From assembly GCA_025617375.2 (NCBI GenBank), contig JAMYGW020000007.1:1302001-1366000 (forward strand): a stretch of 64,000 bases of DNA, given 5' to 3'. The position numbers and the translations under genes were made by a program. Each line of letters opens with the position of its first letter. The first letter of the stretch is position 1. The notes under the pieces are model-generated. The model made no database searches. It was not told where the DNA came from and saw nothing but the letters and a program-made list of their open reading frames with translations. The stretch is from Acarospora socialis (Eukaryota; Ascomycota; Lecanoromycetes; Acarosporales; Acarosporaceae). Below, piece after piece: positions 12,711 through 64,000 of this stretch.

Positions 12711-15410
12711 TCGGCTGTTTGGCGCAGTGGTTTGAAAAAACTTCTGTGACATATGACTACCTCTAAGTAAGATAACAAGTTCAAGTTCTGTAGTCAACAC
12801 TGTGAGTGCTGACTTTTACAATATAACAAGACAGAGTAAAAGAATCTCTTGAGATTGATCACTCAATGTTTATCAATTAAATCTATTACAAATCTTAAAA
12901 ATCATCTAACTGTAACAGATTAAAGCATGATTCTTGATTAACTGTGATTTGAATTGATAATAAATCAGCTTTCATTATATTTAAAATAGACATTTAATAT
13001 CATTGCTTTCAATAATCTGTGTTACACATGCAGTAAAGATGCTAAAAGTTAGAAGAATATGAGATGCAAATTTTCTATATGCTAGAGCATGTTCATTACA
13101 ACTATAAAATCAAACAATACATTTTTTAAAGATCAGTATTCTTTTACACACTCACACATTTGTGACTAAATAGTCTGAGATCTTTATCAGCTGAATAAAT
13201 CTGATGTGAACAATATAAATTTTACAATCTTTGAATTTAATTATTTGCTTTTATGAAATAGATATTGTTGAAATAAGAAGACTTTTTAGAGTTTTAACTC
13301 TATCTAATTTAATGTTACAGTCAAGTCTAAAAGAACTTAATACAGATCAACAGATATATCTGAGAGATGTATAACAGATTAATTGTTAAATAGTAGTTAT
13401 ATGATATCTTGTTATGCTTGATAAAATTAATAATAAACAAGACAAAATCAGACTAGCAGATGCTTAATAAACTTAATAAACTCAATAATGAAATTAAATT
13501 TTAAAATAATCATCAGATCAGACTGACTCTAACTTAATTTGATCTGATTTTAATTTGATCTACAAATCAGATCAGATCAAAGTTAGTTTGATTGCTTTGA
13601 CTTAATTTGCAGATTAATTTGAGTCAATTATATGATACATACTTTGTGTATATTTGTTGTATATGACTTATGAAATCTCATAGAGTATCATGTTCAGTAT
13701 ATAATATTTTATATGTTATGTAGAGCACATTTCTAACAATTATTTCTAACAATCAAACATGATAACATAATAAGTTGATAACTTTACTACTAACTTAAAC
13801 TATTTTATTGTTTCACATCTTGCATTAATTCAAAAAATGTCAAATAATCATAAAATTTCTGCACAAGAATCATATTCTTTATTTAAATAATAATTTACTT
13901 AACATGTATAGTGCAGAGATTTATATCTATCAATTGAATTAGAAGACTGATCATCAAAAAAACTTAATAGCAAAGTTTTATCTTTAAGATAAATCATTAA
14001 AAAGATTTCAGCAGTCTTCTATAAAGCTTATATGACAATTTTCTGTCAGTAAACATAATTAAAACATATTTAACTGTCATTTATACAGATTGCTCTGATC
14101 AGTTGAATAAAAAATCAGTTTGAAATTAATAGATCTGCAGACTTCTGATAGTGATATATTTTTTGTAAAGTAGTTTTTGTATATAAGTGCATTAGAATTG
14201 AGTATTAAAATATTAAAGTAATTGTACTTACTACTTGACTTTGTGCATCTTTTTTGTCTAGTCATTGTGTTTAAATGAATTGAAGAGAATAAAAAGTCAT
14301 TCTCTCAATTTGTACTGCATGATGAAGAAAACTGAGAAATGCATATTACTGCATTTTAAACAGTGAAATATATCAGTATTTCAGTCAACAGATAATCTGT
14401 CTTTTGTTGCAACTTAAACATTATTTAATTTCTTGCAAGTTCTCAGACACTATACTCTATTATTTTATGTTTTATAAACATTTTAAATTCATTAAATATC
14501 ATGCAACAACTTATAAAATGTCAACAGAGAAGAAACATCAAATCAAGAAGATCAAATCAGTATTTTTAACACAGTTTTCTAACAGATTTCAAGCTGATTC
14601 TTCACTTTCAGAAAGAGAATGATGAGAATGATAGCATTGCAAATTAAATTTAAAAATGAAGAGAAGAAGAAAAACATAAAATTGATACACTTAAAAAATC
14701 AGATCAAGCAATAAAATCTGACTTTAACACATTTTGTAAATCAAAGAATAATTATTTAAAACACTGCAGTACAAAATCAGATCACATTTAATGCAAAAAT
14801 TTGTTCTTTATGTTCAAACATCATGATTAAGCTCTTAAATGCAATCAAAACACAAAGTTTTATGCTCTCAAGAAGCTCAGAAAGAACAAAGAATATATTA
14901 ATGTTGATGAGAATATCAGAACACAGATGAAGATTGATGTTATTGAAGATTTTGAGAAGTAATGATATTGAGTGAAACAAAGTGATATGATTTCACTATT
15001 TCATACACAACATGCACTGATGAAGTTAGCTGCATAATTTAAGAAAGAAATTCAGTATATTAAATATAAAATTCAACTCAAAGCAGAGCTCAAAGATCTG
15101 AAAAATGAGAAGAAAGATTTTGAAATTGTTATAACAAATAAAAATATTAAATTAAAAAAGAAAATCTTATCTTTAGATATAAGTAGTAGAGCATTACAAT
15201 AAAACAATGCATTAAAACAATGCATTAAAATTAATATATACTTATAGATTCATTTACAGCTTAATAATCTGACAAATTAAAATCTTAATTTGATCATCTG
15301 TCAGTGAGAAAAAATTGAGTATTTAGTGAGTTGATGAAGTCTTGAGATTGTGAGTAACTTTAATTCTCAAGCTCATATAAAATAATTTTGAAGAGTTTGA
15401 AAATTTTGCT
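12711..15410. other. AT-rich decayed repeat DNA, unassigned
   Basis: About 2.7 kb of AT-rich sequence with almost no CpG or CpC and no host gene. The plus strand between about 14,780 and 15,250 is rich in Lys/Glu-type codons, as in a coiled-coil gag-like or structural protein, but I cannot name a family. It could be the left part of an LTR element interrupted by the LINE cluster that begins at 15.4 kb. Confidence 0.4.
13266..13751 (+). repeat. Possible degenerate LTR
   Basis: This stretch of about 486 bases begins TGTTGAAAT and ends ATTTCTAACA, imperfect inverted termini of the TG...CA type used by LTR elements. A short ATG-led frame follows about 85 bases downstream. No second copy of the LTR is seen in the window, so this is only a suggestion. 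It is a decayed fossil at best. Confidence 0.22.
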
Positions 15411-16309
15411 TGAAACTCTTTATGGAAACCACAGAACCACAACCAAACCAGCTATCAAAATTCTGAATAGAGCAAATTCTTCATCTCATTCACTTTCATA
15501 AACTCTCAAAACAGCTTATCTTCATCATCAATACTGGTGGTGAGGGATCTTAATTACCATTCTTTCAAAATTTTTCACATACCTCCTCCCAAAAAACCAA
15601 AACAACATTTTGGACATCAACATCGCCACAACCAATGTGTCTTCAAAAATTCTGAATCAACAGTTTTCTTCACCTTGATCTCTTCTAAAATTCATACTAT
15701 TACTGCTTTTTGATATCTTCATTGCTCACAAAGTTGTTGAACTGTTTAGTTGTACCCCTTAGTATCTAGATTTTTGAAGTTCACAAATTTTCACTTAATT
15801 TTCTTAGCTTGCTTGACAGAATTTTTGCGCACCAAGCATCATAAGATACCTCAACTAAGCCTCAATCACACCAAAACACTAAAAACACCAAAACAACCAA
15901 GAAAACACCAACTACGCAGCAATTACACAGCAATTCCAGCCTATACACCCAGCCACACCAATTCACACATCATACAACATTTCTATATAGTCTTACCACT
16001 CAAATAAGCTATATCCTCAACAAAACCAGCTACTTTTCAGCTATTTCTGCCCAAAAACAAGTGTTTCATGCTCAAATTCCAGAAGTTTCAGGCTGAATTA
16101 CACCAAACCGCTTGAAATCCAGCATTCGCATGCAGTTTTCGCAAAACTAGCTGCAAAATAGCCATTTCTCAACGGATTTCGCTGAAATTTGAGCATTTCT
16201 TCTGTCAATTGATTAGTGTTTTGCATGCAGAAAGAAATCCATCCACTATAGGAGACATATTCTCACTAGACACATCTCACAAAGATTTAGTTGTGAGTAT
16301 AAGCAGATA
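15411..16309 (+). mobile_element. LINE fragment, 5' leader only (3'-truncated)
   Basis: It begins with AACTCTTTATGGAAACCACAG and is collinear with the leader of the full-length LINE that starts at 16,312 (shared blocks around AATACTGGTGGTGAGG and TTGTACCCCTTAGTATCTAG). It stops after AGTATAAGCAGATAG, before ORF1, where the next LINE begins. LINE copies are usually cut at the 5' end, so loss of the 3' part points to insertion or recombination instead. It is more C-rich, and so less decayed, than the sequence on its left. Confidence 0.8.
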
Positions 16310-17635
16310 GCAAGTAGTGAAGAAGAGGGTAGAAAATCACAGAACCACAATCAAACCAGCTATCAAAATTCTGAATAGAGCAAATTCTTCACTTCATTCA
16401 CTTTCATAAACTCTCAAAACAGCTTATCTTCATCATCAATACTGGTGGTGAGGAACCTCAATTACCATTCTTCCAAAATTTTTTGTGTCCCTCCTCCCAA
16501 AAAATCAAAACAACATTTCGGACATCAACATCGCCACAACCAACACATCTTCAAAAATTCTGAATCAACAGTTTTCTTCACCTTGATCTCTTCTAAAATT
16601 CATACTATTACTGCTTTTTGATATCTTTATTGCTCACAAAGTTGTTGGACTGTTTAGTTGTACCCCTTAGTATCTAGATTTTTGAAGTTCACAAATTTTT
16701 GCTTAATTTTCTTAGCTTGCTTGACAGAATTTTTGCGCACCAAGCATCATAAGATACCTCAACTAAGCCTCAATCACACCAAAACACTAAAAACACCAAA
16801 ACAACCAAGAAAACACCAACTACGCAGCAACTACACAGCAATTCCAGCCTATACACACCAAGCCACATCAATTCATGCATCATACAACATACCTACATAG
16901 CTCTACCATCAAAACAAGCTAGTTTATCAACAAAATCAACTACTTTTCAGCTATTTTCACTCAAAAACCAGCGTTTCAGGTCAAATTTCTAAGCGTTACA
17001 GGCTGAATTACACCAAATTGCTCAATTCCAGCAACTGCACGCAGTTTCCACAAAAACTAGCCGCAAAATAGCCATTTCTTGACGAATTTAGCTGAAATTT
17101 GAGCATTTCTTCTGTCAATTGATTAGCGTTTTGTGTGCAGAAAGAACCTATCAGTGAAGACATACTCTACACTAGAAGCATCTCACAAAGATCTAGTGAA
17201 GAGTATAAGCAGATAGCTATTTTCTAGCTCTACCTGCTGGTAAAAGCTCAGACTGGCAAACAATGTTGTCTGAGTAGTTGGGATATAAATACAAGGCTCC
17301 ATGTGAAAATCTTGCCCTAGACGCATCTGCCCCAAGATCTAGTGGTTGAGTGACTTATAGTATAGTCTTGCTTATAGTAGAGCTGGTAAAAGTCTATTGT
17401 AGAGTTTATCTACTCTAGGTGAATTGAAATATTAAGCAACATCTGGATTAGGCAATTGGGTACAGTCTATTCTAGATGAAATAAGGATTTAAAGCTTCTA
17501 TAATCTAGAACCTCAGGAAAATCTAGTTTTTATTTTCAAAAACTAGATAATTACTGCTAGACATAGACCTTCTGGACCTGGATTTGAATAGAATTTTGAA
17601 TTTGAACAGGATGGACCCCAAAAACACCTCATATC

Positions 17636-19225
17636 ATGACTTTTGCACTGGATTTCAGCAACTTCATGCAAGATTTCAACCTAGAAAACCCAAAAACACC
17701 TACAAAACAACAAAAATCACCAAAAACAGCACTTTCACAACTCTTTATGAGTTCACCAGACCTGTTGGGATCACAAATCATCATGAAACCTTCTCAAAAG
17801 ACTATTCTAAAGTCTAAAAAGAGAAGAGCCATTGCCAGTTCAGTGCTAGAAGCTATTTCTTCTGATGAAGAATCAAATCAGCATGAAACTCATCATGCAA
17901 ACTGCACAAACCTACACCCAAAAAGCCAAAATGGTGACAAACTACTTCAACAAGCTAGAAACTACCTCAAGCAAGCTATTCAGCAATTCACAAACCCCAT
18001 AGTTCAACAAGAACTAGAAACTAGCATCAAGACACTGGATCAAGCAAGACAAAATGCAAATCTAGACTCACTCAAACAGTCAGATGAAGCATTTCATCAG
18101 AAACTAGATGTTCAACAACAACTAGACAGCTTCAAAGATGAAGTCAACATCAAACTAGACAAAATTCTTCACACAATGTCTAAAACAAAGTCAGAAACCA
18201 CAGAGAAATCAGCATTTGTCTTTCAGACAAACAAAACAAACTCTATCAACTTTGTACAGACAAACAAAACCAGCTTTGGACAATCAACATCAACAAAAAC
18301 AGCCAAACCAGCTACATATGCATCAATTGCAAGCAGCAAAGACCAAAATGCTCAAAACTCATGGACAACTGTTCAAAAAAAAGCACCAAAGCCAAAAGTA
18401 GTGAATAAACTCACTACTTTCAGAGAAAGACATCTAGTTATGAAGTCAAAAACATCCACAACTACTATCAATGTCATAGACATGTGCAACAAAATCAACA
18501 ACACACTTAAAACAGCAAAAATAGACAATTTGCTGATTTCCACAGTTGCTATTTCACAATCCAAAGCTAGTATAGTGCTCACAACCAGTGAAGACACAGC
18601 AGAAGACTTGCTAAAACATCAACAAATCTGAAATTCATCATCTGAATTCATAGAAATCAAAAAGGATGAAAAGTGGTACAAAATAGTAGCACATGGAATT
18701 CCCACAGCTATTTTCAACAACAAAGAAGACATGCAACTAGTCAAAGATGAAGTAGAAACCTTCAATAAAGACATTAAACTAGCTGTTCTACCACACTGGC
18801 TTACCTCAGAAGAAGTCAGACAAGAAAAACTGCATGATTCTATTGTTTTGACTGTCAAATCAGAACAAGAAATTCAGAAACTACTCAGAAACAGACTGAT
18901 AATAGCTGAAACATCAGTCAGAACTGCAGTTTACAACACATGCAAGTCAACAGATCAATGCAGAAAGTGTCAGAAATTTGAACATTTGCAAACTGTATGC
19001 AAAAACAAAGACACTTGTCAATTCTGTGCAGGAAACCACAATACTAGAGAACATGGCTGTTTTCTCTGTCCCACACAGTCAAAAGGAACCACTTGTGCAC
19101 ATATAGTCTATAAATGCAGCAATTGTGGTGAGAAACATCAAGCAAATAGTGCAGAATGCAGTGTTTTCAAAGCACTACAGTCTATTTCTTCAACAGCAGA
19201 TCCACTATCTATGAAAATGTCATGA
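17636..19225 (+). pseudogene. LINE ORF1 (zinc-knuckle RNA-binding protein), one TGA interruption
   Basis: The frame spans 530 codons and is broken only by TGA at 18,629-18,631. The first 330 residues include a Lys-rich stretch (KSKKRR near 60), Gln/Asn-rich helices and a conserved block around TTINVIDMCNKINNTLK. The C-terminal part has three knuckle-like motifs: CRKCQKFEHLQTVC starting near residue 442, then CQFCAGNHNTREHGC, then CSNCGEKHQANSAEC. Such ORF1 proteins coat the element RNA. The terminal TGA overlaps the ATG of ORF2. A second ATG frame of 77 codons (17,584-17,817) overlaps the ORF1 start in another phase. Confidence 0.85.
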
Positions 19226-22200
19226 ATAACACAACAAATTCATCACAAATCACCATTCTACAACACAACTGCGCAAGATCTATGAATGTCATGTACTCAT
19301 GTCTGAATTCAGCTACAAAAACTGCAGATATAGTTCTTCTTCAAGAATCATGGGTTGCAAGAGACAACAAAACCACTATTTCACATTCATCTTTTACTAG
19401 TTTGATACCCACATCTAATCTAGATATTAGATCTAGAACTATGGCATTTGTGTCTAAAACTAAACAAGATTTAGTGTGTATATCAAGACCTGACTTGTCA
19501 AAAGACTCAGATTTGCAAATACTCAGTATTTCAGCAAATGGAATTTCTAGTATACTGTTACTTAACATATACAATGAAAAGTCACAGCAAATCAACAATG
19601 ATCAATGAACCATAGACAGATGTTTAACAGCAATTCAACTACCACAAAGAGCTATTATCTGTGGGGATTTTAATGCACATCATGCATGGTGAAATTCATC
19701 AATAGAAAACTCTATAAGAGCTACTTCTTTAATAAAGTGGTTGAAAATTCACAACTGTGAGCTATTAAATACACCAGACATAAACACCTATACACATCAC
19801 TCAGGAAATGCCACATCAGTGATTGATTTGACTTTTGCAACACCCTTACTTTGCAATTTCATCAGAAATTGGCAAGTAAATCAAGACATGGAGTCTGAAT
19901 CAGACCATGAAGTTATTCAGTTTCAAATAACTGCAAATGAGTCTGAATGGGTTGAAAGTCCACTAAGTGCATCATACAATATAGACAAAGCAGACTGGGT
20001 TAAATTTGCAGAAACTCTGCAAATAAACTCAGTACAAATCAGTGTTCAAATTCAAAGCTTAATGCAACATCTATCAGATCAAAATCTAGAAGAAATGACT
20101 ATTTCTCTCAGAAATCTGATAGCAAATGCAGCAGATCAGCATATACCAAAGAGAAAACCTTGTTCAAAAGCCAAAGTATGGTGGTCTGAATCATTATCAG
20201 TACTTAGAACTGAAATGAGTGGTTTTAGAAGATACTGAAAACATCACAAATCACAAGAAAACTGAAATCAATTCAGAAATGCAAGAAATAGATACTTTCA
20301 TGCAATTCAGAAAGCCAAACATACCTCATGAACTACTTTTCTGCAAGGTGCAGCTGGAAAAGATGTTTTTACAGCATATCATTACACTAAATCATGAAAA
20401 ATAGAGAAAACACCTTCTATAAAGCATGAAAACAAAGTGGAACTCATATTTAAAGACAAATGTGACTTGTTTCTTGAAGCTATGTTTTCAAAACCACCTC
20501 AAACAAGTTCAGTTAAGCTAGAATGTGATAATAGTCTCACAAAATCATGGTTTTCAGTCATTTCTAAGGAAATAAAACAAGCTATTATGACTTCATCAAC
20601 AAAGAAAGCACCTGGGCCAGATGGATTGTCCTTTTTGATAATTCAACATGCATATCAAGCTATATCTGAGTTATTTCACACTGTTTATTCAGTTTTAATA
20701 AATCAAGACTATCATTCAGTATGCTGACATCAAGAAACTGATGCAATTCTGAGAAAAGAAGGCAAAGCAGACTACTCAATACCCAAAGCATATAGATCAA
20801 TCACTCTACTAAATTGCTTGAGCAAAATATCTGAAAAGATAATGACAACAAGACTTTCCTATTGGGCTGAAATCACAGACTTGCTATATCATGAGCAAAT
20901 GAATGGTAGAAAGCAAAGATCAGCTGTGGATGCAGCTATGTGTTTAACACATGACATTCAACAAGCAATCAACAACAACAAAGTCTTGACAGCTTTATTC
21001 CTGGATGTTAAGGATGCATTTAACTATGTGTCTTTAAATCAACTGCTAAAAGTCATGAAAAGACTACATTTACCACAAACTGTACTAAAATGAATGCAAT
21101 GCTTTCTTACAAATAGAACAATTGCTCTAGCTTTTGATGATGAAAAAAATCACCCACAAAGTGTCAATTCTGGAATTCCACAAGGATCACCTATATCACC
21201 AATGCTATTTTTGATCTATATGTGATTTCTATTCACAAAAATCAACAATAAACACACTCAACTAAAGCTACCAAGCTATATTGATGATGTGACTATTATT
21301 GTGGAAGAAAAAACAGCTGCAGACAACAGCAAAACATTAAAATCAGTCACAAAAACTGCATTTCAATGAGCTGAAGAAAATGCAGTTATATTTGATGACA
21401 GCAAGTCAGAACTCATTCATTTTCAGAAAGAAAATCAAGCTATATCAACAGTAAAACTATCAAATAACACTGTTATACATCCTTCTAAAGTTGTATGCTG
21501 GCTAGGTGTTTGGTTTGACACTAAAATGTCTTTTAAGACACATGTGCAAAAGAAAATAGCTTCTGCAACTAGAACATTGCATTTACTGCATAGACTGATG
21601 AATTCTGAATGGGGTTTATCAACATCAGCTGGAAAACAGCTGTACACAGCCTGCATCACATCTATAAGTGACTATGGAAGTTCAGTATGGTGGAAACAAC
21701 AAAAGAATTTTGAAAAGCTGTTTCAAAAACTTCAAAATTCAGCAACTAGAAAAATTCTAGGTGCATTTAGGTCTTCACTATCAGCTGCTATGAAGCTAGA
21801 ATCAGCTATATTACCACTCAGATTTAGACTTGATCAAAAAACAGAGCTATATGCTTTAAGAATAGCTACTTTGTCAGAAAATCATCCAATTAGACAAAGA
21901 ACTCCATACACCTACTCATCAGAACTTGAAACTGAATGTGATATTGATGAAGATCATTATCTTGACTGAAATCAACATTCAAACTCTCTCATTAAGAAGA
22001 AACACCCAACTCAGTTGATTAAAGTGCTATATAGCATTTGCAAATATCTACCAGAAACACTAAATTTGGAGATTTCAACTCAAAATGAGTTATGCTGTGC
22101 ACCTTGAAGTGTTTCACCAAACATAGACATTCAAATCAGCAAATCTGACAAGAAACTAGCTACTTTGAAACATCTAAAGAAATTAGAAACACTTGTTTCT

Positions 22201-23139
22201 AAAGAAACTAGAGCAAGAAATGCTATTCTATACACAGATGGGTCAAAACTAGATGAAAATCTAGGTGCAGGTCTTTGCTACATGTATAAAGATATTATAC
22301 ATCAACAATCTTGGAATCTAGAAACCACCATGGAAGTCTATGATGCTGAATTGTTTGGAATTTCACAGTCTTTGAAGTTAAGTCTCAAAGAAATCATGAA
22401 ATATCAAAGAATCAAAGACATATGAATCTTTTCAGACAATCAAGCAGCTATACAAAGAATTCAAACCACAAATCAAGGATCTGGACAGCATCTAGCTATT
22501 AAATGTCAAGAAACTCTTCAAAAACTCATAGATTATGAAGTTACACCTCATATTCATTGGCTCCCTGAACATGAGAACATTAAAGGCAATGAAATAGCAG
22601 ATAAAGCTGCAAAATCAGGTGCAAAGCAGTCAATTTCACCAGATATTGATAGATTTACATCTATTAGCTATATCAAACACAAAATCAAGGTCAAAGCACT
22701 GGAAAACTGGACCACCCACTGGAAAAAGACAACTCAAGAAAGATACTATGCTCAGTTTGATCAAACACCTAGTTTTCACATCAAAGAAGATCTGAAAAGT
22801 GCAGACAGACTTTCATTTGCTACTTTTACACAAATGAAACTAGGTCATGACTATTTCAAAGCATATCTGCATAGATTATCAGACTATAACAGCAAGAAAT
22901 GCAATGGTGCATGCAACAAAGATCAAACCCCAGAGCATTTGTTGACAGCCTGTCAATATAACAAAAAGGAGCAAACTGAGCTGAAAAATCAGCTCAGAAA
23001 CATCAATTTGCCATATACAGCAAAGGTGCTATTTACTACCAAGGAAGGAATCAAAGCTACTTTGCTGTTTTTGAAGAAAACCAAAGTAGCTACTAGAAAA
23101 TGGTTATTAGAAGAAGTTGAGAGTGAAGATGAGATTTAG
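19222..23139 (+). pseudogene. LINE ORF2: APE endonuclease - reverse transcriptase - RNase H, interrupted only by TGA
   Basis: A 1,306-codon frame ends in TAG. It holds 13 in-frame TGA codons and no TAA, TAG or frameshift. Endonuclease, residues 1-230: ILQHNCAR, the catalytic LLQES, GDFNAHHAW and the terminal SDHEV. Reverse transcriptase, about 400-750: KAPGPDGLS, motif A LFLDVKDAFNYVS, GIPQGSPISPMLFL and the catalytic box SYIDDVT (YIDD rather than the common YADD). RNase H, about 1,000-1,120: ILYTDGSK, YDAELFGI, IFSDNQAAI and GNEIADKAA, with all acidic residues present. A Cys/His end motif, CNGACNKDQTPEHLLTAC, lies near the C-terminus. The TGAs fall where Trp is expected, for example the second Trp of HAWW, which is TGG in the copy at 55.6 kb. 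Confidence 0.9.
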
Positions 23140-23316
23140 AAAAGAAAAAAGATATTGATTGACAATCAGCATCAGGTTGACTGAACAGAAGTGATCAAAA
23201 AGTATTCAGATTGATTATTCACATGTACAAGATTTTGAGTTTTGTTTTGTGTCTACATCTTTCACTATATGTCTATTAACTGCCATAGCTTTTATAGCTG
23301 CATGCATAGAATGAAG

Positions 23317-23334
23317 AATAAATAAATAAATAAA
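23317..23334 (+). repeat. LINE 3' tail, AATA microsatellite
   Basis: Four to five AATA units end the plus-strand LINE, as in I/Tad1/CR1-type elements that end in short tandem repeats rather than poly(A). The sequence immediately to the right is antisense LINE ORF2, so no host flank is present at the tail. Confidence 0.8.
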
Positions 23335-25168
23335 TGACTTTTAGCAGTTGATTTAAAGACACATAGTTAAATGCACCCTTAACATCCAGAAATAAAGCTG
23401 TCAAGACTTTGTTGTTGTTGATTGCTTGTTGAATGTCATGTGTTAAACACATAGCTGCATCTACAGCTGATCTTTGCTTTCTACCACTCATTTGCTCATG
23501 ATATAGCAAGTCTGTGATTTCAGCCCAATAGAAAAGTCTTGTTGCCATTATCTTTTCAGATATTTTGCTCAAGCAATTTAGTAGAGTGATTGGTCTATAT
23601 GCTTTGAGTATTGAGTAGTCTGCTTTGCCTTCTTTTCTCAGAATTGCACCAGTTTCTTGATGTCAGCATACTGAATGATAGTCTTGATTTATTAAAACTG
23701 AATAAACAGTGTGAAATAACTCAGATATAGCTTGATATGCATGTTGAATTATCAAAAAGAACAATCCATCTGGCCCAGATGCTTTCTTTGTTGATGAAGT
23801 CATAATAGCTTGTTTTATTTCCTTAGAAATGACTGAAAACCATGATTTTGTGAGACTATTATCACATTCTAGCTTAACTGAACTTGTTTGAGGTGGTTTT
23901 GAAAACATAGCTTCAAGAAACAAGTCACATTTGTCTTTAAATATGAGTTTCACTTTGTTTTCATGCTTTATAGAAGGTGTTTTCTCTATTTTTCATGATT
24001 TAGTGTAATGATATGCTGTAAAAACATCTTTTCCAGCTGCACCTTGCAGAAAAGTAGTTCATGAGGTATGTTTGGCTTTCTGAATTGCATGAAAGTATCT
24101 ATTTCTTGCATTTCTGAATTGATTTCAGTTTTCTTGTGATTTGTGATGTTTTCAGTATCTTCTAAAACCACTCATTTCAGTTCTAAGTACTGATAATGAT
24201 TCAGACCACCATACTTTGGCTTTTGAACAAGGTTTTCTCTTTGGTATATGCTGATCTGCTGCATTTGCTATCAGATTTCTGAGAGAAATAGCCATTTCTT
24301 CTAGATTTTGATCTGATAGATGTTGCATTAAGCTTTGAATTTGAACACTGATTTGTACTGAGTTTATTTGCAGAGTTTCTGCAAATTTAACCCAGTCTGC
24401 TTTGTCTATATTGTATGATGCACTTAGTGGACTTTCAACTCATTCAGACTCATTTGCAGTTATTTGAAACTGAATAACTTCATGGTCTGATTCAGACTCC
24501 ATGTCTTGATTTACTTGTCAATTTCTGATGAAATTGCAAAGTAAGAGTGTTGCAAAAGTCAAATCAATCACTGATGTGGCATTTCCTGAGTGATGTGTAT
24601 AGGTGTTTATGTCTGGTGTATTTAATAGCTCACAGTTGTGAATTTTCAACCACTTTATTAAAGAAGTAGCTCTTATAGAGTTTTCTATTGATGAATTCCA
24701 CCATGCATGATGTGCATTAAAATCCCCACAGATAATAGCTCTTTGTGGTAGTTGAATTGCTGTTAAACATCTGTCTATGGTTCATTGATCATTGTTGATT
24801 TGCTGTGACTTTTCATTGTATATGTTAAGTAACAGTATACTAGAAATTCCATTTGCTGAAATACTGAGTATTTGCAAATCTGAGTCTTTTGACAAGTCAG
24901 GTCTTGATATACACACTAAATCTTGTTTAGTTTTAGACACAAATGCCATAGTTCTAGATCTAATATCTAGATTAGATGTGGGTATCAAACTAGTAAAAGA
25001 TGGATGTGAAATAGTGATTTTGTTGTCTCTTGCAACTCATGATTCTTGAAGAAGAACTATGTCTGCAGTTTTTGTAGCTGAATTCAGACATGAGTACATG
25101 ACATTCATAGATCTTGTGCAGTTGTGTTATAGAATGGTGATTTGTGATGAATTTGTTGTGTTATTCAT
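23335..25168 (-). pseudogene. LINE ORF2, 5' part only, minus-strand copy
   Basis: It contains the endonuclease and the start of the reverse transcriptase (KKASGPDG, then LFLDVKGAFNYVS). It is cut after LNQLLKV, where the frame runs into the antisense tail of the plus-strand LINE. The catalytic YIDD box, RNase H and C-terminal zinc motif are absent. Several TGA interruptions sit at Trp positions, as in the plus copy. Confidence 0.82.
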
Positions 25169-26754
25169 GACATTTTCATAGATAGTGGATCTGCTGTTGA
25201 AGAAATAGACTGTAGTGCTTTGAAAACACTGCATTCTGCACTATTTGCTTGATGTTTCTCATCACAATTGCTGCATTTATAGACTATATGTGCGCAAGTG
25301 ATTCCTTTTGACTGTGTGGGACAGAGAAAACAGCCATGTTCTCTAGTATTGTGGTTTCCTGCACAGAATTGACAAGTGTCTTTGTTTTTGCATACAGTTT
25401 GCAAATGTCCAAATTTCTGACACTTTCTGCATTGATCTGTTGACTTGCATGTGTTGTAAACTGCAGTTCTGACTGATGTTTCAGCTATTATCAGTCTGTT
25501 TCTGAGTAGTTTCTGAATTTCTTGTTCTGATTTGACAGTCAAAACAATAGAATCATGCAGTTTTTCTTGTCTGACTTCTTCTGAGGTAAGTCAGTGTGGT
25601 AGAACAGCTAGTTTAATGTCTTTATTGAAGGTTTCTACTTCATCTTTAACTAGTTGCATGCCTTCTTTGCTGTTGAAAATAGCTGTGGGAATTTCATGTG
25701 CTACTATTTTGTATCACTTTTCATCCTTTTTGATTTCTATGAATTCAGATGATGAATTTCAGATTTGTTGATGTTTTAGCAAGTCTTCTGCTGTGCCTTC
25801 ACTGGTTGTGAGCACTATATTAGCTTTGGATTGTGAAATAGCAACTGTGGAAACCAGCAAATTGTCTATTTTTGCTGTTTTAAGTGTGTTGTTGATTTTG
25901 TTGCGCATGTCTATGACATTGATAGTAGTTGTGGATGTTTTTGACTTCATAACTAGATGTCTTTCTCTGAAAGTAGTGAGTTTATTCACTACTTTTGGCT
26001 TTGGTGCTTTTTTTTGAACAGTTGTCCATGAGTTTTGAGCATTTTGGTCTTTGCTGCTTGCAATTGATGCATATGTAGCTGGTTTGACTGTTTTTGTTGA
26101 TGTTGATTGTCCAAAGCTGGTTTTGTTTGTCTGTACAAAGTTGATAGAGTTTGTTTTGTTTGTCTGAAAGACAAATGCTGATTTCTCTGTGGTTTCTGAC
26201 TTTGTTTTAGACATTGTGTGAAGAATTTTGTCTAGTTTGATGTTGACTTCATCTTTGAAGCTGTCTAGTTGTTGTTGAACATCTAGTTTCTGATGAAATG
26301 CTTCATCTGACTGTTTGAGTGAGTTTAGATTTGCATTTTGTCTTGCTTGATCCAGTGTCTTGATGCTAGTTTCTAGTTCTTGTTGAACTATGGGGTTTGT
26401 GAATTGCTGAATAGCTTGCTTGAGGTAGTTTCTAGCTTGTTGAAGTAGTTTGTCACCATTTTGGCTTTTTGGGTGTAGGTTTGTGCAGTTTGCATGATGA
26501 GTTTCATGCTGATTTGATTCTTCATCAGAAGAAATAGCTTCTAGCACTGAACTGGCAATGACTCTTCTCTTTTTAGACTTTAGAATAGTCTTTTGAGAAG
26601 ATTTCATGGTGATTTGTGATCCCAACAGGTCTGGTGAACTCATAAAGAGTTGTGGAAGTGCTGTTTTTGATGATTTTTGTTGTTTTGTAGGTGTTTTTGG
26701 GTTTTCTAGGTTGAAATCTTGCATGAAGTTGCTGGAATCCAGTGCAAAAGTCAT
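25165..26754 (-). pseudogene. LINE ORF1, minus-strand copy
   Basis: This is collinear with the ORF1 at 17,636-19,225. The frame runs from 26,754 to a TGA at 25,165-25,167 and is interrupted by TGA (the 331-codon open part ends at 25,759). The zinc knuckles are intact, with CRKCQKFGHLQTVC replacing the Glu of the plus copy by Gly. The ORF2 ATG again overlaps the terminal TGA. Confidence 0.85.
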
Positions 26755-28082
26755 GATATGAGGTGTTTTTGGGGTTTGTCCTGTTCAAATCCAAAATTCT
26801 ATTCAAATTCAGGTTCAGAAGGTCTATGTCTAGCAGTAATTATCTAGTTTTTGAAGGTAAAAACTAGATTTTCCTGAGGTTCTAGATTATAGAAGCTTTG
26901 GATTCTTATTTCATCTAGAATAGACTGTACCCAATTGCCTAATCCAGATGTTGCTTAATATCCCAATTCACCTAGAGTAGATAAACTCTACAATAGGCTT
27001 TTACTAGCTCTACTATAAGCAAGACTATACTATAAGTCACTCAACCACTAGATCTTGGGGCAGATGCATCTAGGGCAAGATTTTCACATGAAGCCTCATA
27101 TTTATATTTCAACTACTCAGACAACATTGTTTGCCAGTCTGAGCTTTTATCAGCAGGTAGGGCTAGAAAATAGCTACCTGCTTATACTCTTCACTAGGTC
27201 TTTGTGAGATGCTTCTAGTGTAGAGTATGTCTTCACTGGTAGGTTCTTTCTGCATGCAAAATGCTGATCAATTGACAGAAGAAATGCTCAAATTCCAGCT
27301 AAATCTGTCAAGAAATGGCTATTTTGCAGCTAGTTTTTGCGGAAACTGCGTGCAGTTGCTGGAATTGAGCGATTTGGTGTAATTCAGCCTGTAACGCTTA
27401 GAAATTTGACCTGAAACGCTGGTTTTTGAGCGAAAATAGCTGAAAAGTAGTCGATTTTGTTGATAAACTAGCTTGTTTTGATGGTAGAGCTATGTAGGTA
27501 TGTTGTATGATGCATGAATTGATGTGGCTTGGTGTGTATAGGCTGGACTTGCTGCGTAGTTGGTGTAAAAGTGGTGTTTTTGGTGTTTTCTTGGTTGTTT
27601 TGGTGTTTTTGGTGTTTTGGTGTGAGTGAGGCTTAGTTGAGGTGTCTGGTGATGCTTGGTGCGCAGAAATTCTGTCAAGCAAGCTAGGAAAATTAAGCGA
27701 AAATTTGTGAACTTCAAAAACTAGATACTAAGGGGTACAACTAAACAGTCCAACAACTTTGTGAGCAATAAAGATATCAAAAAGCAGTAATAGTATGAAT
27801 TTTAGAAGAGATCAAGATGAAGAAAACTGTTGATTCAGAATTTTTGAAGATGCGTTGGTTGTGGTGATGTTGATGTTTGAAATGTTGTTTTGATTTTTTG
27901 GGAGGAGGTACACAAAAAATTTTGAAAAAATGATAATTGAGATCCCTCACCACCAGTATTGATGATGAAGATAAGCTGTTTTGAGGGTTTATGAAAGTGA
28001 ATGAGGTGAAGAATTTGCTCTATTCAGAATTTTGATAGCTGGTTTGATTGTGGTTCTGTGGTTTTCTACTCTCTTCTTCATT

Positions 28083-30352: not shown

Positions 30353-30837
30353 TCTGACTAGATGATGTCATTATTCTTGCATAGTGAATGATTGACTCAA
30401 TGATGTTCATAGTAACAATTGACTTTTGCTTATACAAAGATACTCAGAATCAATGACACTTATTTGTACTCTTGCTATCTATAGAACATTTTTATCTATT
30501 ACTCAATAGAATGATTCTTAAGCTTGCAATGCTCAGCTTAAAAGTGTATGTGCTTACTGATTAAATAAATTGCAGATATCATGTTCTGCATAAGTGCAAC
30601 ACTAATATTGACTTTAACAGACAGTAAAACATCAACATATGTTTCATTGAACACAGTGTTAGCAATGCACTTACTTTTAACTGCACATTGTGATAAACTC
30701 AATATCTAACAAAATTGAGATTGCATGTAAAAACAGTATTGAACACTGATTTCTTTGAGAAAAACTATGTCAACATGATTTTCTATCTCAACTCAATATC
30801 AACATGTGTTTAAGCTGTTATATTCTTCTCATAAGGT
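30353..30837. other. AT-rich decayed DNA, unassigned
   Basis: These are 485 bases between the gypsy-like LTR and the left edge of the minus-strand Copia fossil. I see no gene or recognisable repeat. The composition is the same CpG- and CpC-poor type as its surroundings. Confidence 0.35.
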
Positions 30838-45281: not shown

Positions 45282-45377
45282 TGTTACAGTTGCATGATCA
45301 TGATACACAACCTGCACATTCACTTATACATTTACTTAGAATCTGATCTTGTGATCAGGCAGATCTTTTGTCTTAGT
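45282..45377 (+). repeat. Decayed copy of the LTR-like repeat end at 12,614
   Basis: It starts TGTTACAGTTGC and contains TCACTTATACATTTACTTAG, then a decayed version of the GC-rich block of the 12.6 kb copy. Of 13 transitions I could align by eye, 7 are in CpC/GpG, 4 in CpG and 2 in CpA context. About 14 extra bases lie near the start relative to the other copy. Confidence 0.6.
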
Positions 45378-47216: not shown

Positions 47217-47422
47217 TGTTAAGAGAAGAATACTTGTGCTATACTACTGACTAACTGTCTATCTAGTGAAATATACACTGTTGATTTGACTGTGATAAAC
47301 ATAAGTTGTAAAGATTATCTATTCACATACTCTGTTATGCAGACTATATGAATAATGAATAATTTTTAATGTTAATCTTAACTAAAATTATGAAAGCAAC
47401 TAAAACACTGCACTTCTCAACA
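47217..47422 (-). repeat. Copia-family LTR (minus orientation, 3' LTR)
   Basis: A 206-base unit with TGTT...AACA ends, the best bounded of the three copies of this LTR in the window. Confidence 0.72.
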
Positions 47423-47890
47423 CTTCTACTCAGTGATGCTGTATTTATTAACTTTTATTAACAGTAAGTTTCAGTTGTTCAACAAAGTGTTTAAAGATTC
47501 ATTTAAAATAAAACTTAATTAGTTTATCAGTTATCATGTCTTGACTGAGCACAAAGTTCACATCAATTTGATTTTGATTGTGCAGATTACAAATATGATG
47601 ATAAATAATGTTAATGTGCTTTGATTATTCATGCACATATGCATTCTTAATCAGTATCAAGACAATTTGATTGTCTTTTTTGAGCTGAAAAGATGAGATT
47701 ACTTGATGAGCTTCATTTTTCTTGATGTTCACACAGTATGAATTGTCTTCAAAATACTTATTTATATTCATGTTTTGCAGCATCTGTGTAAGTCAGACTT
47801 CAGTTTTTATACATATTGATATAATTATGTATTCAGTCTCTGTGATTGAAATGATAACAGACTTTTGCTTTTGATTTGTTCATGTTATAG
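47217..47890 (-). mobile_element. Copia-like fossil (minus strand): 3' LTR and RNase H end
   Basis: The LTR at 47,217-47,422 has clean inverted termini (TGTTAAGAG at the left, TCTCAACA at the right). To its right, antisense sequence up to about 47,890 is collinear with the RNase H region of the plus-strand Copia fragment at 36,540-36,973. The rest of the element is not seen. It is broken and decayed. Confidence 0.68.
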
Positions 47891-49256
47891 ATTAACTAGT
47901 TGCTTAAATGTATTCTGTGACTGTAACTCATCAGATTACTTTGCAATCTCACTGTCATCATGAACTTAAACTAGCTTGCTAAATATGAAAGACATCTCTA
48001 TAAGTATATAGACAGAATTTTTCATAGATAGATTTTTAGCAATTACATTCTTCATTCACTCATATAAAGATTCTAATAATTTGATAGCATCAACTGTTTT
48101 CAAATTATTGAGTCTTCAATCATTGATTCAAAGTCTTCAAAATTAATCATCTTCATACAACATCATGACTTCATCATCAACATCATCAACAGTCAGATTT
48201 CTATCTAGTCATCATCATCAGACTCTTCAACATATTGAGTTCATCAATTTTATCAAGACTGTTTTCACTACTTAACATATCAAATATCTATCTGATATCT
48301 ATCTGATCACTATTTTTTATCTGTTTGACATATTCTGTTTGCTTGTGTCTCACTTGTTTGATTCACTGCTTTCTTACTTTGCTTTTGTTCATATTTATTT
48401 TGTTGTTTTCATGATTATTTTGTGAAGCTTATCTTTCTCACAGTCATGTTCATGAGTCATTAATCTGACAAAGTCTTCAACAGACTCAACATCAAACTTT
48501 AACTCAGCTACTTCAAGTCAAGATCTACTCTGTCTATCAGATTATTGTGTACTAGCTGTTTATCAGCTCAAACAGTTTAAATCAACAAATTACATTTACA
48601 TCTTTCTTATCTCAAATAACATTGTCAGTTTAGCACACAGTATCATCATCTTATATTTTACTCTTGTAGAATATCAGTCTTCTATCTTTATCATTAAGTC
48701 ACAGCAAACTTGTGCAGATATCAGTCAGTCAAATCTAGATTACTTTACTAGCTGATCTCTTATGAAGAGTTTTTTTATTAAGATTATTTGTCATTTCAAG
48801 AAGAACTCAATATCACTACTTAATCACTTTATCTTCTCAACATGAGTCTTATTTCAAGTACTCTTCAACAACAATGTCAATCATTCAGACTCATTTTAAG
48901 CTAAGTGAAGTCTTCATTGATTTCTACTTTCATCATCAAACAAATCTGATTTATTTACAGTATCATCATCACTCAAGACTGATCAGTTACACAAACTGAC
49001 ATCTTCTGAAACTCAGTCACATATGTTTTTCTTTGCTGATAAAAGCATACAGTGCAGCTCATCATTATCTTAAAATATGATCAATGACAACAATGATCAT
49101 GACAGTCATCATAACAACATTTTCATCACTGCTGATTTCATCTTTTCAGAAGTGCAAATGTAAATGCTTTAAAAAATGATTGCTCAGACTAGAAATAAAG
49201 ATCATGTTAAAGATTGTGCTGAGATTATTAACTCAGCATCTCATTATCTCAAAACA
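47891..49256. other. AT-rich decayed DNA with TCA-rich plus strand, unassigned
   Basis: About 1.4 kb. The plus strand is full of CATCATC and CTTCAAC runs (Ser-rich in one frame), but I find no family or host gene. CpG and CpC are nearly absent. Confidence 0.35.
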
Positions 49257-52239
49257 ACTCTTTATGAAAACCACAGAACCACAATCAAACCAGCTATCAA
49301 AATTCTGAATAGAGCAAATTCTTCATCTCATTCACTTTCATAAACTCTCAAAACAGCTTATCTTCATCATCAATACTGGTGGTGAGGGATCTCAATTATC
49401 ATTCTCTCAAAATTTTTTGCATATCTCCTCCCAAAAAATCAAAACAACATTTTGGACATCAACATCACCACAATCAACATGTCTTTGAAAATTCTGAATC
49501 AACAGTTTTCTTCATCTTGATCTCTTCTAAAATTCATACTATTACTGCTTTTTGATATCTTCATTGCTTACAAAGTTGTTGGACTGTTTAGTTGTACCTC
49601 TTAGTATCTAGATTTTTGAAGTTCACAAATTTTCACTTAATTTTCTTAGCTTGCTTGACAGAATTTCTGCACACCAAGCATCATAAGATATCTCAACTAA
49701 GTCTCAATCACATCAAAACATCAAAAACACCAAAACAACCAAGAAAACACCAACTACACAGCAATTACACAGCAATTCCAGCCTATACACCCAGCCACAC
49801 CAATTCACACATCATACAACATTTCTATATAGTCTTACCACTCAAATAAGCTATATTCTCAACAAAATCAGCTACTTTTCAGCTATTTCCACCCAAAAAC
49901 CAGTGTTTCACACCCAAATTCCAGAAGTTTCAGGCCAAATTACACAAAACTGCTTGAAATCCAGCATTCACATGCAGTTTTCGCAAAACTAGCTGCAAAA
50001 TAGCCATTTCTCAACAAATTCACTGAAATTTGAGCATTTCTTCTGTCAATTGATTAGCATTTTGCATGCAGAAAGAAATTCATCCACTATAGAAGACATA
50101 TTCTTACTAGACACATCTCACAAAGATCTAGTTGTGAGTATAAGCAGATAGCTATTTTCTAGTTCTACCTTGCTGATAAAAGCTCAGGCTGGCAAAGAAC
50201 ATCATCTGAGTAGTTTGAAATATAAATCACAAGAATTCAGTGTGAAAATCTTGCTCTAAATGCATCTGCTCCAAGATTTAGTGATTGAGTGACTTATAGT
50301 ATAGTCTTGCTAATAGTAGAGCTGGTATAAAGTCTATTGTAGAGTCTATCTACTCTAGATGAATTGAAATATTAAGCAACATCTGAATTAGACAATTGAA
50401 TACAGTCTATTCTAGATGAAATAAGAATTCAAAGCTTCTATAATCTAGAAACCCAGAAAAGTCTAGTTTTTATCTTCAAGAGCTAGATTATTACTGCTAG
50501 ACATAGATCTTCTGGACCTGGATTTGAATAGGATTTTGGACTTGAATAGAATGAATTTCAAAAACACCTCATATCATGGCTTTTGCACTGAATTCCAGCG
50601 ATTTTATTCAAGATTTCAACATAGAAAATTCAAAAACACCCACAAAACAACAAAAATCATCAAAAACAACACTTCCACAACTCTTTATGAGTTCACCAGA
50701 CTTGTTAGAATCACAATTCACCATGAAACTCTCTCAGAAGACTATCCTAAAGTCTAAAAAGAGAAGAGCAATTGTCAGCTCAGTGTCAGAAACTATCTTC
50801 TCTGATAAGAAATCAAATTGCTATGAGATTCATGCAAATCTGCATGAAACTGGCCCCAAAGACAATCAAAGTAGTGATGAACTACTTCAACAAGTCAGAA
50901 AACATCTCAAACAAGCACTTCAGCAATTCACAAACTCTACAGTTCAACAAGAACTAGAAACTAGCATCAGAGCACTGAATTAAGCAAGACAAAATGCAAA
51001 TCTAGACTCACTCAAGCAGTCAGATGAAGTATTTTACCAAAAACTAGATGTTCAACAACAGCTAGACAGCTTCAAAGATGAAATCAACATCAAACTAGAC
51101 AAAATTCTCCACACAATGTCTAAAACAAAGCCACAAATCACAGAAAAACCAGCATTTGTCTTTCAGACAAATAAAACAAATCTCATCAGCTTTGTACAGA
51201 CAAACAAGACTATCTTTGGACAATCAACATCTGCAAACACTGCAAAATCAGCAAATATCACAAACTCAGCTACATATGCATCAATTGCAAGCAGCAAAGA
51301 TCAAAACTCATGAACAACTGTTCAAAAGAAAGCACCAAAGTCAAAAGTAGTGAATAAATCCATTACTTTTAGGAAAAGACATCTAGTTATGAAGCCAAAA
51401 ACACCCACAACTACTATCAATGTCATAGACATGCAAAACAAAATCAACAATGCACTTAAAACAGCAAAAATAGACAATTTACTGGTTTCCACAGTTGCTA
51501 TTTCACAGTTCAAAGCCAGCATAGTGTTTACAATCAGTCAAGACACAGCAGAAGATCTTCTAAAACATCAAGATATTCTGAATTCATTATTTGAATTCAC
51601 AGAAATCAAAAAGGATGAAAAGTGACACAGAATAGTAGCACATGAAATTTTCACAGCTATTTTCAATGTCAAAGAAGGCATGCAACTAGCCAAAGATGAA
51701 GTAGAAATCTTCAACAAAGACATCAAAATAACTACTTTATCACACTGACTCACAGCAGAAGAAGCTAGACAAGAAAAACAGCATGACTCTATTGTCTTGA
51801 CAGTGAAAACTGAGCAAGAAATTCAGAAATTACTCAGAAACAGACTGATTATTGCTGAAACATCAGTCAGAACTGCAGTGTATATCACATGCAAGTCTAC
51901 AGATCAATGCAGAAAGTGTCAGAAGTTTGAACATCTACAAACAACATGTAAAAACAAAGATACATGTCAATTCTGTGCTGGAAATCACAATACTAGAGAA
52001 CATAGCTGTTTTCTATGTTTCATGCAATCAAAAGGAATCACTTGTGCACATATAATTTATAAGTGCAGCAATTGTGATGAGAAACACCAAGCAAATAGTG
52101 CAGAATGTAATGTTTTCAAAACATTACAGTCTATTTTCTCAACAGCAGATTCACTAGACATGGAATGGTCATGAATTATATACAAAATTCATCATATTCA
52201 TCAAATTCCTCACAAATAACCATTCTACAACACAACTGC
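49257..52239 (+). mobile_element. Older LINE copy, leader and ORF1 only (3'-truncated)
   Basis: It begins AACTCTTTATGAAAACCACAG, the same start as the fragment at 15,411, and is collinear with the full LINE through leader and ORF1. It stops at the beginning of ORF2, after CATTCTACAACACAACTGC, where the next LINE begins. It carries more transitions than the other LINE copies (for example ATGGACCCC has become ATGAATTTC), so it is older or more heavily mutated. Confidence 0.85.
50576..52174 (+). pseudogene. LINE ORF1, decayed copy
   Basis: It is in frame with the ORF1 of the full copies but has several interruptions: one TAA near 50,981 (from a Gln codon) and TGA at Trp-type positions near 51,311, 51,624 and 51,747. 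The zinc knuckles are still readable (CRKCQKFEHLQTTC, CSNCDEKHQANSAEC). The terminal TGA overlaps the ORF2 ATG as in the other copies. Confidence 0.8.
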
Positions 52240-62686: not shown

Positions 62687-64000
62687 GATATGAGGTGTTT
62701 TTGGGGTCCATCCTGTTCAAATCCAAAATCCTATCCAAATCCAGGTCCAGAAGGTCTATGTCTAGCAGTAATTATCTAGTTTTTGAAGGTAAAAACTAGA
62801 TTTTCCTGAGGTTCTAGATTATAGAAGCTTTGAATTCTTATTTCATCTAGAATAGACTGTACCCAATTGCCTAATTCAGATGTTGCTTAATATCCCAATT
62901 CACCTAGAGTAGATAAACTCTACAATAGGCTTTTACCAGCTCTACTATAAGCAAGACTATACTATAAGTCACTCAACCACTAGATCTTGGGGCAGATGCA
63001 TCTAGGGCAAGATTTCCACATGAAGCCTCATATTTATATCCCAACTACTCAGACAACATTGTTTGCCAGTCTGAGCTTTTACCAGCAGGTAGGGCTAGAA
63101 AATAGCTACCTGCTTATACTCTTCACTAGGTCTTTGTGAGATGCTTCTAGTGTAGAATATGTCTTCACTGGTAGGTTCTTTCTGCATGCAAAATGCTGAT
63201 CAATTGACAGAAGAAATGCTCAAATTCCAGCTAAATTCGTCAAGAAATGGCTATTTTGCAGCTAGTTTTTGCGGAAACTGTGTGCAGTTGCTGGAATTGA
63301 GCGATTTGATGTAATTCAGCCTGTAACGCTTAGAAATTTGACCTGAAACGCTGGTTTTTGAGCGAAAATAGCTGAAAAGTAGTCGATTTTGTTGATAAAC
63401 TAGCTTGTTTTGATGGTAGAGCTATGTAGGTATGTTGTATGATGCGTGAATTGATGTGGCTTGGTGTGTATAGGCTGGACTTGCTGCGTAGTTGGCGTAA
63501 AAGTGGTGTTTTTGGTGTTTTCTTGGTTGTTTTGGTGTTTTTGGTGTTTTGGTGTGAGTGAGGCTTAGTTGAGGTGTCTGGTGATGCTTGGTGCGCAGAA
63601 ATTCTGTCAAGCAAGCTAGGAAAATTAAGCAAAAATTTGCGAACTTCAAAAACTAGATACTAAGGGGTACAACTAAACAGTCCAACAACTTTGTGAGCAA
63701 TAAAGATATCAAAAAGCAGTAATAGTATGAATTTTAGAAGAGATCAAGGTGAAGAAAACTGTTGATTCAGAATTTTTGAAGATGCGTTGGTTGTGGTGAT
63801 GTTGATGTTTGAAATGTTGTTTTGGTTTTTTGGGAGGAGGTATGCAAAAAATTTTGGAAAAATGATAATTGAGGTCCCTCACCACCAGTATTGATGATGA
63901 AGATAAGCTGTTTTGAGGGTTTATGAAAGTGAATGAGGTGAAGAATTTGCTCTATTCAGAATTTTGATAGCTGGTTTGGTTGTGGTTCTGTGATTTTGAT

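What the first reader, a model, noticed from the sequence alone, without database searches (positions are those of the whole stretch)
12711..64000. RIP-like hypermutation that spares CpA and targets CpC and CpG
The repeat compartment looks mutated C-to-T on both strands, but its context is not the classic one. CA and TG, the normal RIP target and its complement, are among the commonest dinucleotides (for example 37.8-45 kb). CpG is almost absent and CpC/GpG rare. Where copies can be compared, most changed sites are C before C or G. In the pair 12,614/45,282, 11 of 13 transitions counted by eye are CpC/GpG or CpG and only 2 are CpA. Canonical Pezizomycotina RIP changes CpA to TpA and would deplete CA/TG. 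A process preferring C before a strong base would be unusual and may point to a variant deaminase or methyltransferase, or to successive processes.
Basis: partly seen in the sequence, partly recalled or inferred. Interest (0 to 1): 0.85.

Follow-up and report, generated by a model that had tools for sequence, protein, structure and literature searches.

The report
RIP-like mutation preferring CpG and CpC
About 51,000 bases of mostly dead mobile DNA next to normal genes, in what looks like a filamentous fungus, have been heavily C-to-T mutated, mainly where C is followed by C or G, which reverses the usual target order of the known fungal genome-defence process called RIP.

Summary
Confirmed. 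In 12,711-64,000 CpG is at 0.05 of expectation, CpC 0.41, GpG 0.45, while CpA/TpG stand at 1.54/1.52 and TpA at 0.62; genes at 1-12,610 are normal. A 6.8-kb stretch has no CC, GG or CG; shuffles average 352. Two 98.8%-identical 11.75-kb units differ by 132 transitions and 5 transversions; of 110 differences with equal flanks 89 are at CpG/CpC, which are 551 of 4,037 C sites, a per-site ratio of 27. Independently, 20 of 22 distinct stop sites in the LINE frames are TGA; in the two full-length ORF2 all are TGA, with 78 CAA/CAG codons left. One graded process, CpG>CpC>>CpA~CpT at 20:1, roughly reproduces the old blocks and the divergence of their copies, so CpA is disfavoured, not immune. Best reading: an active RIP-like mutator with shifted preference. 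Homology dependence and enzyme are untested; no genome is held. Standard RIP indices would call this DNA RIP-negative. Species unknown; if it is Coccidioides, an unusual RIP there was published in 2010 (recalled, not held), which limits novelty.

The parts
1..12610 (.). Gene block with normal dinucleotides, the internal control: Neugrin/RRG9-like, Rgp1, ATP synthase OSCP and GH63-type genes
   Evidence: CC, CG, GG o/e 0.93-0.95; Pfam PF06413, PF08737, PF00213, PF03200/PF22422
12760..15424 (.). CpS-free block (no CC, GG or CG between these positions), GC 24-26%
15414..16311 (+). LINE 5' fragment, 94% identical to 49,256-50,152
16316..23334 (+). LINE copy L1: ORF1 frame 17,606-19,225, ORF2 frame 19,150-23,139; 14 internal stops, all TGA (end of the element not defined exactly)
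   Evidence: (PF00078 in L1; Exo_endo_phos_2 in the L4 copy)
23334..28080 (-). Inverted 5' 4.7 kb of the same LINE (L2), forming a palindrome with L1
   Evidence: 97.5% to 16,318-21,056, inverted
28100..30834 (.). Middle-exposure block: CC o/e 0.09, CG 0
30835..37668 (.). 6.8-kb block without any CC, GG or CG inside; inverted repeat arms 30,837-31,721 / 35,684-36,570; weak Copia-type RT match at 35,974-36,204
37700..45600 (.). Middle-exposure block: CG 0, CC o/e 0.11, CA o/e 1.68; surviving CpC is ACC 37, GCC 10, CCC 2, TCC 2
45282..45387 (+). Mutated copy of the 94-bp intergenic piece at 12,614-12,707
45700..49255 (.). Nearly CpS-free block (2 sites left), with an arm repeated inverted at 36,513-37,170
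49256..52239 (+). Older LINE 5' copy (L5), 86% to L1
52240..63997 (+). Second copy of the LINE palindrome unit (L3 plus inverted L4), 98.8% to 16,316-28,065; main source of the mutation spectrum

Best explanation
The repeat compartment has been hit repeatedly by an active, RIP-like C-to-T mutator that works on both strands of chromosomal DNA and prefers C followed by G or C (CpG somewhat above CpC, with T favoured on the 5' side) over C followed by A or T by about 20-30 to 1. CpG and CpC run out first, which makes TGG codons into TGA and leaves no CGN arginine codons in the LINE ORF2 examined. Only after long exposure do CpA and CpT decline, about equally. Blocks differ in how much exposure they have had. 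Shown here: direction, context, even action on both strands, action before and after the last duplication, and that one graded process is roughly enough. Inferred: that repeats are recognised by homology in the sexual cycle and that a RID/Masc1- or DIM-2-type cytosine methyltransferase with an altered reading of the 3' base does it.
For: Composition and sharp edge with the gene block. Young pair: 132 transitions to 5 transversions; equal-flank differences CG 14/56, CC 75/495, CA 12/1,922, CT 9/1,564; ratio 26.8 (95% interval 17.7-46.2); 89 of 110 at CpS against 13.6% expected, p about 1e-56. Four LINE copies: 149 C/T-type variable columns against 6 others, 113 of the 149 at CpC/CpG, 22 CpA, 14 CpT; copy-specific changes 30 C>T and 35 G>A. 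Stops: L1 ORF2 13 and L3 ORF2 14 internal, all TGA; over ORF1 of five copies and ORF2 of four (two of them the first 620 codons only) 20 of 22 distinct stop sites are TGA; where another copy lacks a TGA stop, it has TGG in 27 of 31 copy-to-copy comparisons. Arginine codons of L1 ORF2: AGA 44, AGG 1, CGN 0. Graded simulation from window 1-12,600 at long exposure: GC 0.255, CA 1.47, CT 1.22, TA 0.72; observed in the old blocks 0.261, 1.52, 1.18, 0.71. Two simulated lineages differ at 0.41 of CpA and 0.40 of CpT sites; observed 0.38 and 0.43. Four block edges lie within about 20 bp of element edges at 15,414, 28,080, 30,837 and 49,256. CpS difference per site is about 380 times the per-site transversion rate in the young pair.
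Against: No genome is held, so no methyltransferase could be sought and no repeat census made. Most of 28-49 kb has no second copy in the window, so repetitiveness is unproven there. Runs of same-strand changes, which RIP can give, are not clear: 2 of 8 tests have p 0.02-0.03, the other 6 are 0.18-0.87, and 4 tests give 0.10-0.57. Pairs P4 and P6 carry 80 and 21 transversions and many CpW changes, so part of their divergence is of another kind. The rates in the simulation were set by hand from the young pair, not fitted; GpC (0.98 against 1.10) and GpA (1.42 against 1.30) fit less well, and the middle block lies between graded and CpS-only action. Two of 22 stop sites are TAA. The stop sites of related copies are partly shared, so the counts are not independent events.
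Confidence: 0.62

Rival explanations
1. Passive decay: repeats are held methylated at CpG and CpC in heterochromatin by a DIM-2, Masc2 or DNMT5-type enzyme, and 5-methylcytosine deaminates over long times without a dedicated mutator.
For: CpG is the most affected context; published work explains CpG loss in fungal TEs that way (PMC8063080, passages; PMC4352252, passages). Exposure differs by block as age would.
Against: Transversions are very few: P7 has 146 transitions and 2 transversions in 885 sites; CpS sites differ about 380 times more than the per-site transversion rate in the young pair. The contexts reach zero, not a low plateau. That such a rate is beyond passive deamination is my judgement from general knowledge, not a call.
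Confidence: 0.2
2. Two processes in succession: CpG methylation decay plus a separate CpC-directed or weak general C-to-T mutator.
For: CpG (0.25) is hit more than CpC (0.15) in the young pair, and CpA/CpT changes dominate between old copies.
Against: One graded process roughly reproduces old-block composition and old-copy divergence. CpG and CpC are both depleted in every block outside the genes and both raised per site in the young pairs. CpG-only simulation leaves CC at 1.08.
Confidence: 0.13
3. Canonical CpA-type RIP.
For: C-to-T on both strands in a compartment with repeats, with a high transition excess.
Against: CpA and TpG in excess, TpA low; 78 CAA/CAG codons kept in each full-length ORF2 with only TGA stops. 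Simulated CpA-type RIP gives CA 0.25-0.69 and TA 1.26-1.45.
Confidence: 0.01
4. APOBEC-like editing of retroelement cDNA before insertion.
For: The young elements are LINEs.
Against: Changes arose after duplication of inserted units and are even on both strands, 30 C>T to 35 G>A; blocks not recognised as LINE are affected more.
Confidence: 0.01
5. Compositional drift, selection on codons, or a sequencing/assembly artefact.
For: None found beyond the low GC.
Against: Transitions nearly only, exact context, C kept before A and T, and normal DNA across a sharp edge.
Confidence: 0.02

Closest known systems
RIP of Neurospora crassa
   Same: C-to-T on both strands, repeats hit and genes spared, transitions almost only, repeated rounds (general knowledge of RIP, partly in the passages)
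   Different: Order CpA>CpT>CpG>CpC (quoted in PMC5496416, passage); here CpG>CpC>>CpA~CpT. Stops are TGA, and TpA does not rise above the gene block
RIP of Trichoderma reesei
   Same: A preference shifted from Neurospora's, CpG high
   Different: CpA about equal to CpG, CpC last (PMC5496416, passage); here CpC is second and CpA low
CpG-type (TpCpG) TE mutation of basidiomycetes such as Microbotryum
   Same: CpG the best target; T favoured 5' (here seen at CpC)
   Different: CpC is not given as a main target in the passages seen (PMC2621366; PMC4352252); here CpC goes to zero in the old blocks. The window's genes look ascomycete (inference, not tested)
Coccidioides TE mutation (Sharpton 2009; Neafsey 2010, neither held)
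   Same: LINE GC of 28-31% and a suggested RIP mechanism (PMC5872316, passages). I recall that the 2010 abstract speaks of a RIP process distinctly different from Neurospora's; PMC8063080 cites that paper for a CG context
   Different: Exact contexts could not be read; the species of this window is unknown, so it may be the same thing
Mixed CpG/CpA signature of Tuber melanosporum
   Same: CpG predominant in an ascomycete
   Different: Secondary signature CpA, not CpC (PMC4352252, passages)

Membership tests
Canonical RIP (Neurospora type) | C-to-T transitions on both strands, nearly no transversions | tested here: met
   132:5 and 146:2 in pairs P1 and P7; 30 C>T to 35 G>A. P4 and P6 have 80 and 21 transversions
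Canonical RIP (Neurospora type) | Repeats mutated, genes spared | tested here: inconclusive
   Genes spared, and all recognised repeats mutated; repetitiveness of most of 28-49 kb is not shown
Canonical RIP (Neurospora type) | CpA preferred, TpA excess, CpA/TpG depletion | tested here: not met
   CA 1.54, TA 0.62; CpA 12 of 1,922
Canonical RIP (Neurospora type) | Stops made mainly as TAA/TAG | tested here: not met
   20 of 22 distinct stop sites TGA
Canonical RIP (Neurospora type) | Homology-dependent, premeiotic | not testable with these tools
   Needs crosses or many strains
Canonical RIP (Neurospora type) | Needs RID and/or DIM-2 | not testable with these tools
   No genome held
Basidiomycete CpG/TpCpG mutation | CpG best target | tested here: met
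   0.25 per site, highest, but only 14 of 56 sites
Basidiomycete CpG/TpCpG mutation | Restricted to CpG | tested here: not met
   CpC 75 of 495; CC o/e 0.00 in the old blocks
Passive 5mC deamination | Rate moderate against other substitutions | tested here: not met
   About 380-fold over per-site transversions in the young pair; the yardstick itself is general knowledge
Passive 5mC deamination | 5mC present at the target contexts | not testable with these tools
   No methylation data
APOBEC-type cDNA editing | Changes mainly on one strand of the element | tested here: not met
   30 to 35

The most novel reading that the evidence does not exclude
A dedicated, homology-guided RIP system in a filamentous ascomycete whose enzyme reads the base 3' of cytosine as strong against weak, a mirror image of Neurospora's order. 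It erases CC, CG and GG from repeats and is scored negative by the standard TpA-based RIP indices, so surveys have miscounted fungi that have it.
Probability: 0.42. Interest if true: 0.75.

Novelty: new variant of a known kind. Interest (0 to 1): 0.6.

Why it matters
A screen of 1,239 fungal genomes from 2025 concludes that RIP-like defences share a preference for CpA (PMC12543289, section 9); this DNA is a strong counter-example. With the usual cut-offs (TpA/ApT >= 0.89, (CpA+TpG)/(ApC+GpT) <= 1.03; quoted in PMC3828140) 12,711-64,000 scores 0.70 and 1.57, and 13 of 13 four-kb windows from 12,001 on score at most 0.81 and at least 1.40: no RIP by those rules, although whole kilobases have lost every CC, CG and GG. 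An index built on CC+GG+CG would find such cases. It also offers a natural variant for asking how a RID- or DIM-2-type enzyme reads the base after its target cytosine, and a simple stop-codon test (TGA against TAA/TAG) to sort mutators.

Tried and rejected
Saturation order effects (CpG resolving to TG in one copy and CA in the other; CCG to several ends) as the whole cause of CpA/CpT differences between old copies: rejected. CA/TG swaps are 5 of 133, 5 of 84 and 2 of 20 difference runs in the three old pairs, and single CpA differences remain. CpS-only simulation predicts zero CpA differences in all four settings tried, whereas 108 of 284 are observed. In the graded simulation the observed swaps and divergence lie between the settings with no shared exposure and with shared exposure 1.0.

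Processive, strand-wise action: tested (12 tests), two with p 0.02-0.03, not clear overall.

RNA or tRNA origin of the 94-bp piece at 12,614: no Rfam or ARAGORN hit.

Relatives of the LINE: one piece (22,426-23,139) was sought in viral contigs; 3 pattern matches, none confirmed. No public eukaryote genome collection is on offer here.

Reading TGA as a sense codon (a changed code) instead of mutation: rejected, because TGA sites differ between copies and the copies without the stop mostly have TGG there.

Literature: all 10 searches used. I opened 15 papers, by passages only, except PMC12543289 (abstract, outline, section 9). None of the passages I saw describes a CpC+CpG preference with CpA avoidance; that is no proof of absence. 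Sharpton 2009 and Neafsey 2010 are not held and Clutterbuck 2011 was seen only through citing papers. The table of PMC4014442 lists CpC SNPs as denser than CpG SNPs in Rhizoctonia solani (one per 214 against one per 370 bp); not followed up.

Rows dropped before counts: of 19 self-match rows of 80 bp or more I used 10 pairs; the other 9 are 8 further combinations of the same LINE copies and one 197-bp match. In one search only sites with equal flanks in both copies were counted.
Full report
What was claimed. Observation and interpretation were checked separately.

Composition. In 12,711-64,000, CG is at 0.05 of expectation, CC 0.41, GG 0.45, CA 1.54, TG 1.52 and TA 0.62; in 1-12,610 the same figures are 0.93, 0.94, 0.95, 1.11, 1.02 and 0.76. 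The gene block carries Neugrin/RRG9-like, Rgp1, OSCP and GH63-type genes, so this is a eukaryote and, by inference only, a filamentous ascomycete; the species is not known and no genome is held. The edge is sharp: CC+GG+CG per 50 bp is 9 and 11 in 12,600-12,699, then 7, 1 and 0. From 30,836 to 37,667 there is not one CC, GG or CG; 500 base-order shuffles give 307 or more, mean 352.

Blocks. The compartment is a mosaic. The young LINE unit keeps CC at 0.63 and CG at 0.07; 28.1-30.9 and 37.7-45.6 kb keep CC at about 0.1 and CG at 0; 13-15.4, 31-37.6 and 45.7-49.2 kb together have CC and CG at 0.00 (2 sites are left in 45.7-49.2). Four edges fall within about 20 bp of element edges: 15,414, 28,080, 30,837 and 49,256. 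In the middle block the CpC sites still there are ACC 37, GCC 10, CCC 2 and TCC 2, so a T on the 5' side is favoured. The young pair agrees: TCC 32/131, ACC 26/227, GCC 10/69, CCC 7/68.

Copies. 16,316-28,065 is a LINE with both open-reading-frame regions followed by an inverted 5' 4.7 kb of the same LINE; the whole unit recurs at 52,240-63,997 with 98.8% identity. The two units differ by 132 transitions and 5 transversions. With equal flanks required, CG differs at 14 of 56 sites, CC 75 of 495, CA 12 of 1,922 and CT 9 of 1,564; the CpS to CpW ratio per site is 26.8, interval 17.7-46.2. Among four aligned LINE copies, 149 variable columns are C/T-type and 6 are not; of the 149, 113 are CpC or CpG, 22 CpA and 14 CpT. 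Copy-specific changes are 30 C>T and 35 G>A, so both strands of inserted DNA are hit, which speaks against editing of cDNA. Against the clean picture, the older pairs P4 and P6 have more CpW than CpS changes by count (190 of 293 and 46 of 71) and 80 and 21 transversions; per site CpC and CpG still lead in both.

Stop codons, an independent test. A CpA-type mutator turns CAA and CAG into TAA and TAG; a pure CpC/CpG-type mutator can make only TGA, from TGG or CGA. The full-length ORF2 frames hold 13 (L1) and 14 (L3) internal stops, all TGA, while 78 CAA/CAG codons remain in each. L1 ORF2 is open over 1,329 codons if TGA is counted as sense, and the longest standard frame in it is 237 codons. Over ORF1 of five copies and ORF2 of four (two of them the first 620 codons only), 20 of 22 distinct stop sites are TGA and 2 are TAA; where another copy lacks a TGA stop, it has TGG in 27 of 31 copy-to-copy comparisons and CTG in 4. 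Arginine in L1 ORF2 is AGA 44, AGG 1, CGN 0. Seven stop sites (one in ORF1, six in ORF2) are shared by all four young copies, so the mutator acted before the units were copied; the differences between the units show that it acted again afterwards.

One process or several. Between copies in the old blocks, CpA (108 of 284) and CpT (94 of 219) sites differ, with 146 transitions to 2 transversions in the largest pair. TpA cannot arise from CpS changes alone, so CpA is mutated in the end. A single graded process (CpG 1.8, CpC 1, CpA 0.05, CpT 0.05), started from window 1-12,600, gives after long exposure GC 0.255, CA 1.47, CT 1.22, TA 0.72, against 0.261, 1.52, 1.18, 0.71 observed in the old blocks; GpC (0.98 against 1.10) and GpA (1.42 against 1.30) fit less well. 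It gives two-lineage differences of 0.41 (CpA) and 0.40 (CpT), against 0.38 and 0.43. CpS-only action predicts no CpA differences, CpG-only leaves CC at 1.08, and CpA-type RIP gives CA 0.25-0.69. The rates were set by hand from the young pair, not fitted, and the middle block lies between graded and CpS-only action.

Active or passive. In the young pair CpS sites differ at 0.16 per site (89 of 551) against 0.00043 transversions per site (5 of 11,749), about 380-fold. That is far above what I would expect of spontaneous 5mC deamination (general knowledge, not a call), so an active mutator is favoured. Passive decay keeps some weight because no methylation or strain data exist here. Strand runs, a possible RIP trait, were not clear.

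Known relatives. Neurospora's order is CpA>CpT>CpG>CpC and Trichoderma reesei has CpA about equal to CpG with CpC last (PMC5496416, passage). Other ascomycetes show CpA, CpT or CpG signatures, and basidiomycetes CpG or TpCpG (PMC4352252 and PMC2621366, passages). A 2025 screen concludes that RIP-like defences share a CpA preference (PMC12543289, section 9 read). None of the passages seen gives CpC as a main target of RIP; a table on Rhizoctonia solani SNPs lists CpC as dense (PMC4014442), not followed up. In Coccidioides a RIP mechanism is suggested and LINEs have 28-31% GC (PMC5872316, passages). I recall that Neafsey 2010 describes a RIP there unlike Neurospora's, but it is not held. If the window is from that genus, the finding may be known in outline.

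Verdict. It works like RIP, but it is not canonical RIP, since the CpA preference was tested and not met. It is best called a RIP-like mutator of CpG/CpC type: a new variant of a known kind, or a known one if it is Coccidioides. Standard indices (0.70 and 1.57) would miss it.

Noticed in passing
16,316-28,065 and 52,240-63,997: A LINE plus an inverted 5' (3'-truncated) copy forms an 11.75-kb palindromic unit that is itself duplicated; seven stop sites shared by all four copies suggest they were multiplied after inactivation, so by duplication rather than retrotransposition.
   Followed up: partly
12,614-12,707 and 45,282-45,387: A roughly 94-bp intergenic piece beside the gene block has a mutated second copy inside the AT-rich compartment; no Rfam or tRNA match.
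   Followed up: partly
35,974-36,204: Weak match (E 0.001, below the curated cut-off) to the RVT_2 (Copia-type) reverse transcriptase family in a stretch without any CC, GG or CG.
   Followed up: no
39,285-39,459: Several short 18-bp tandem repeat arrays within the longest standard open frame of the middle-exposure block (39,202-39,726, minus strand).
   Followed up: no
37,700-45,600: Surviving CpC sites are mostly ACC (37) or GCC (10) of 51; TCC is nearly gone (2), which points to a three-base target preference.
   Followed up: partly
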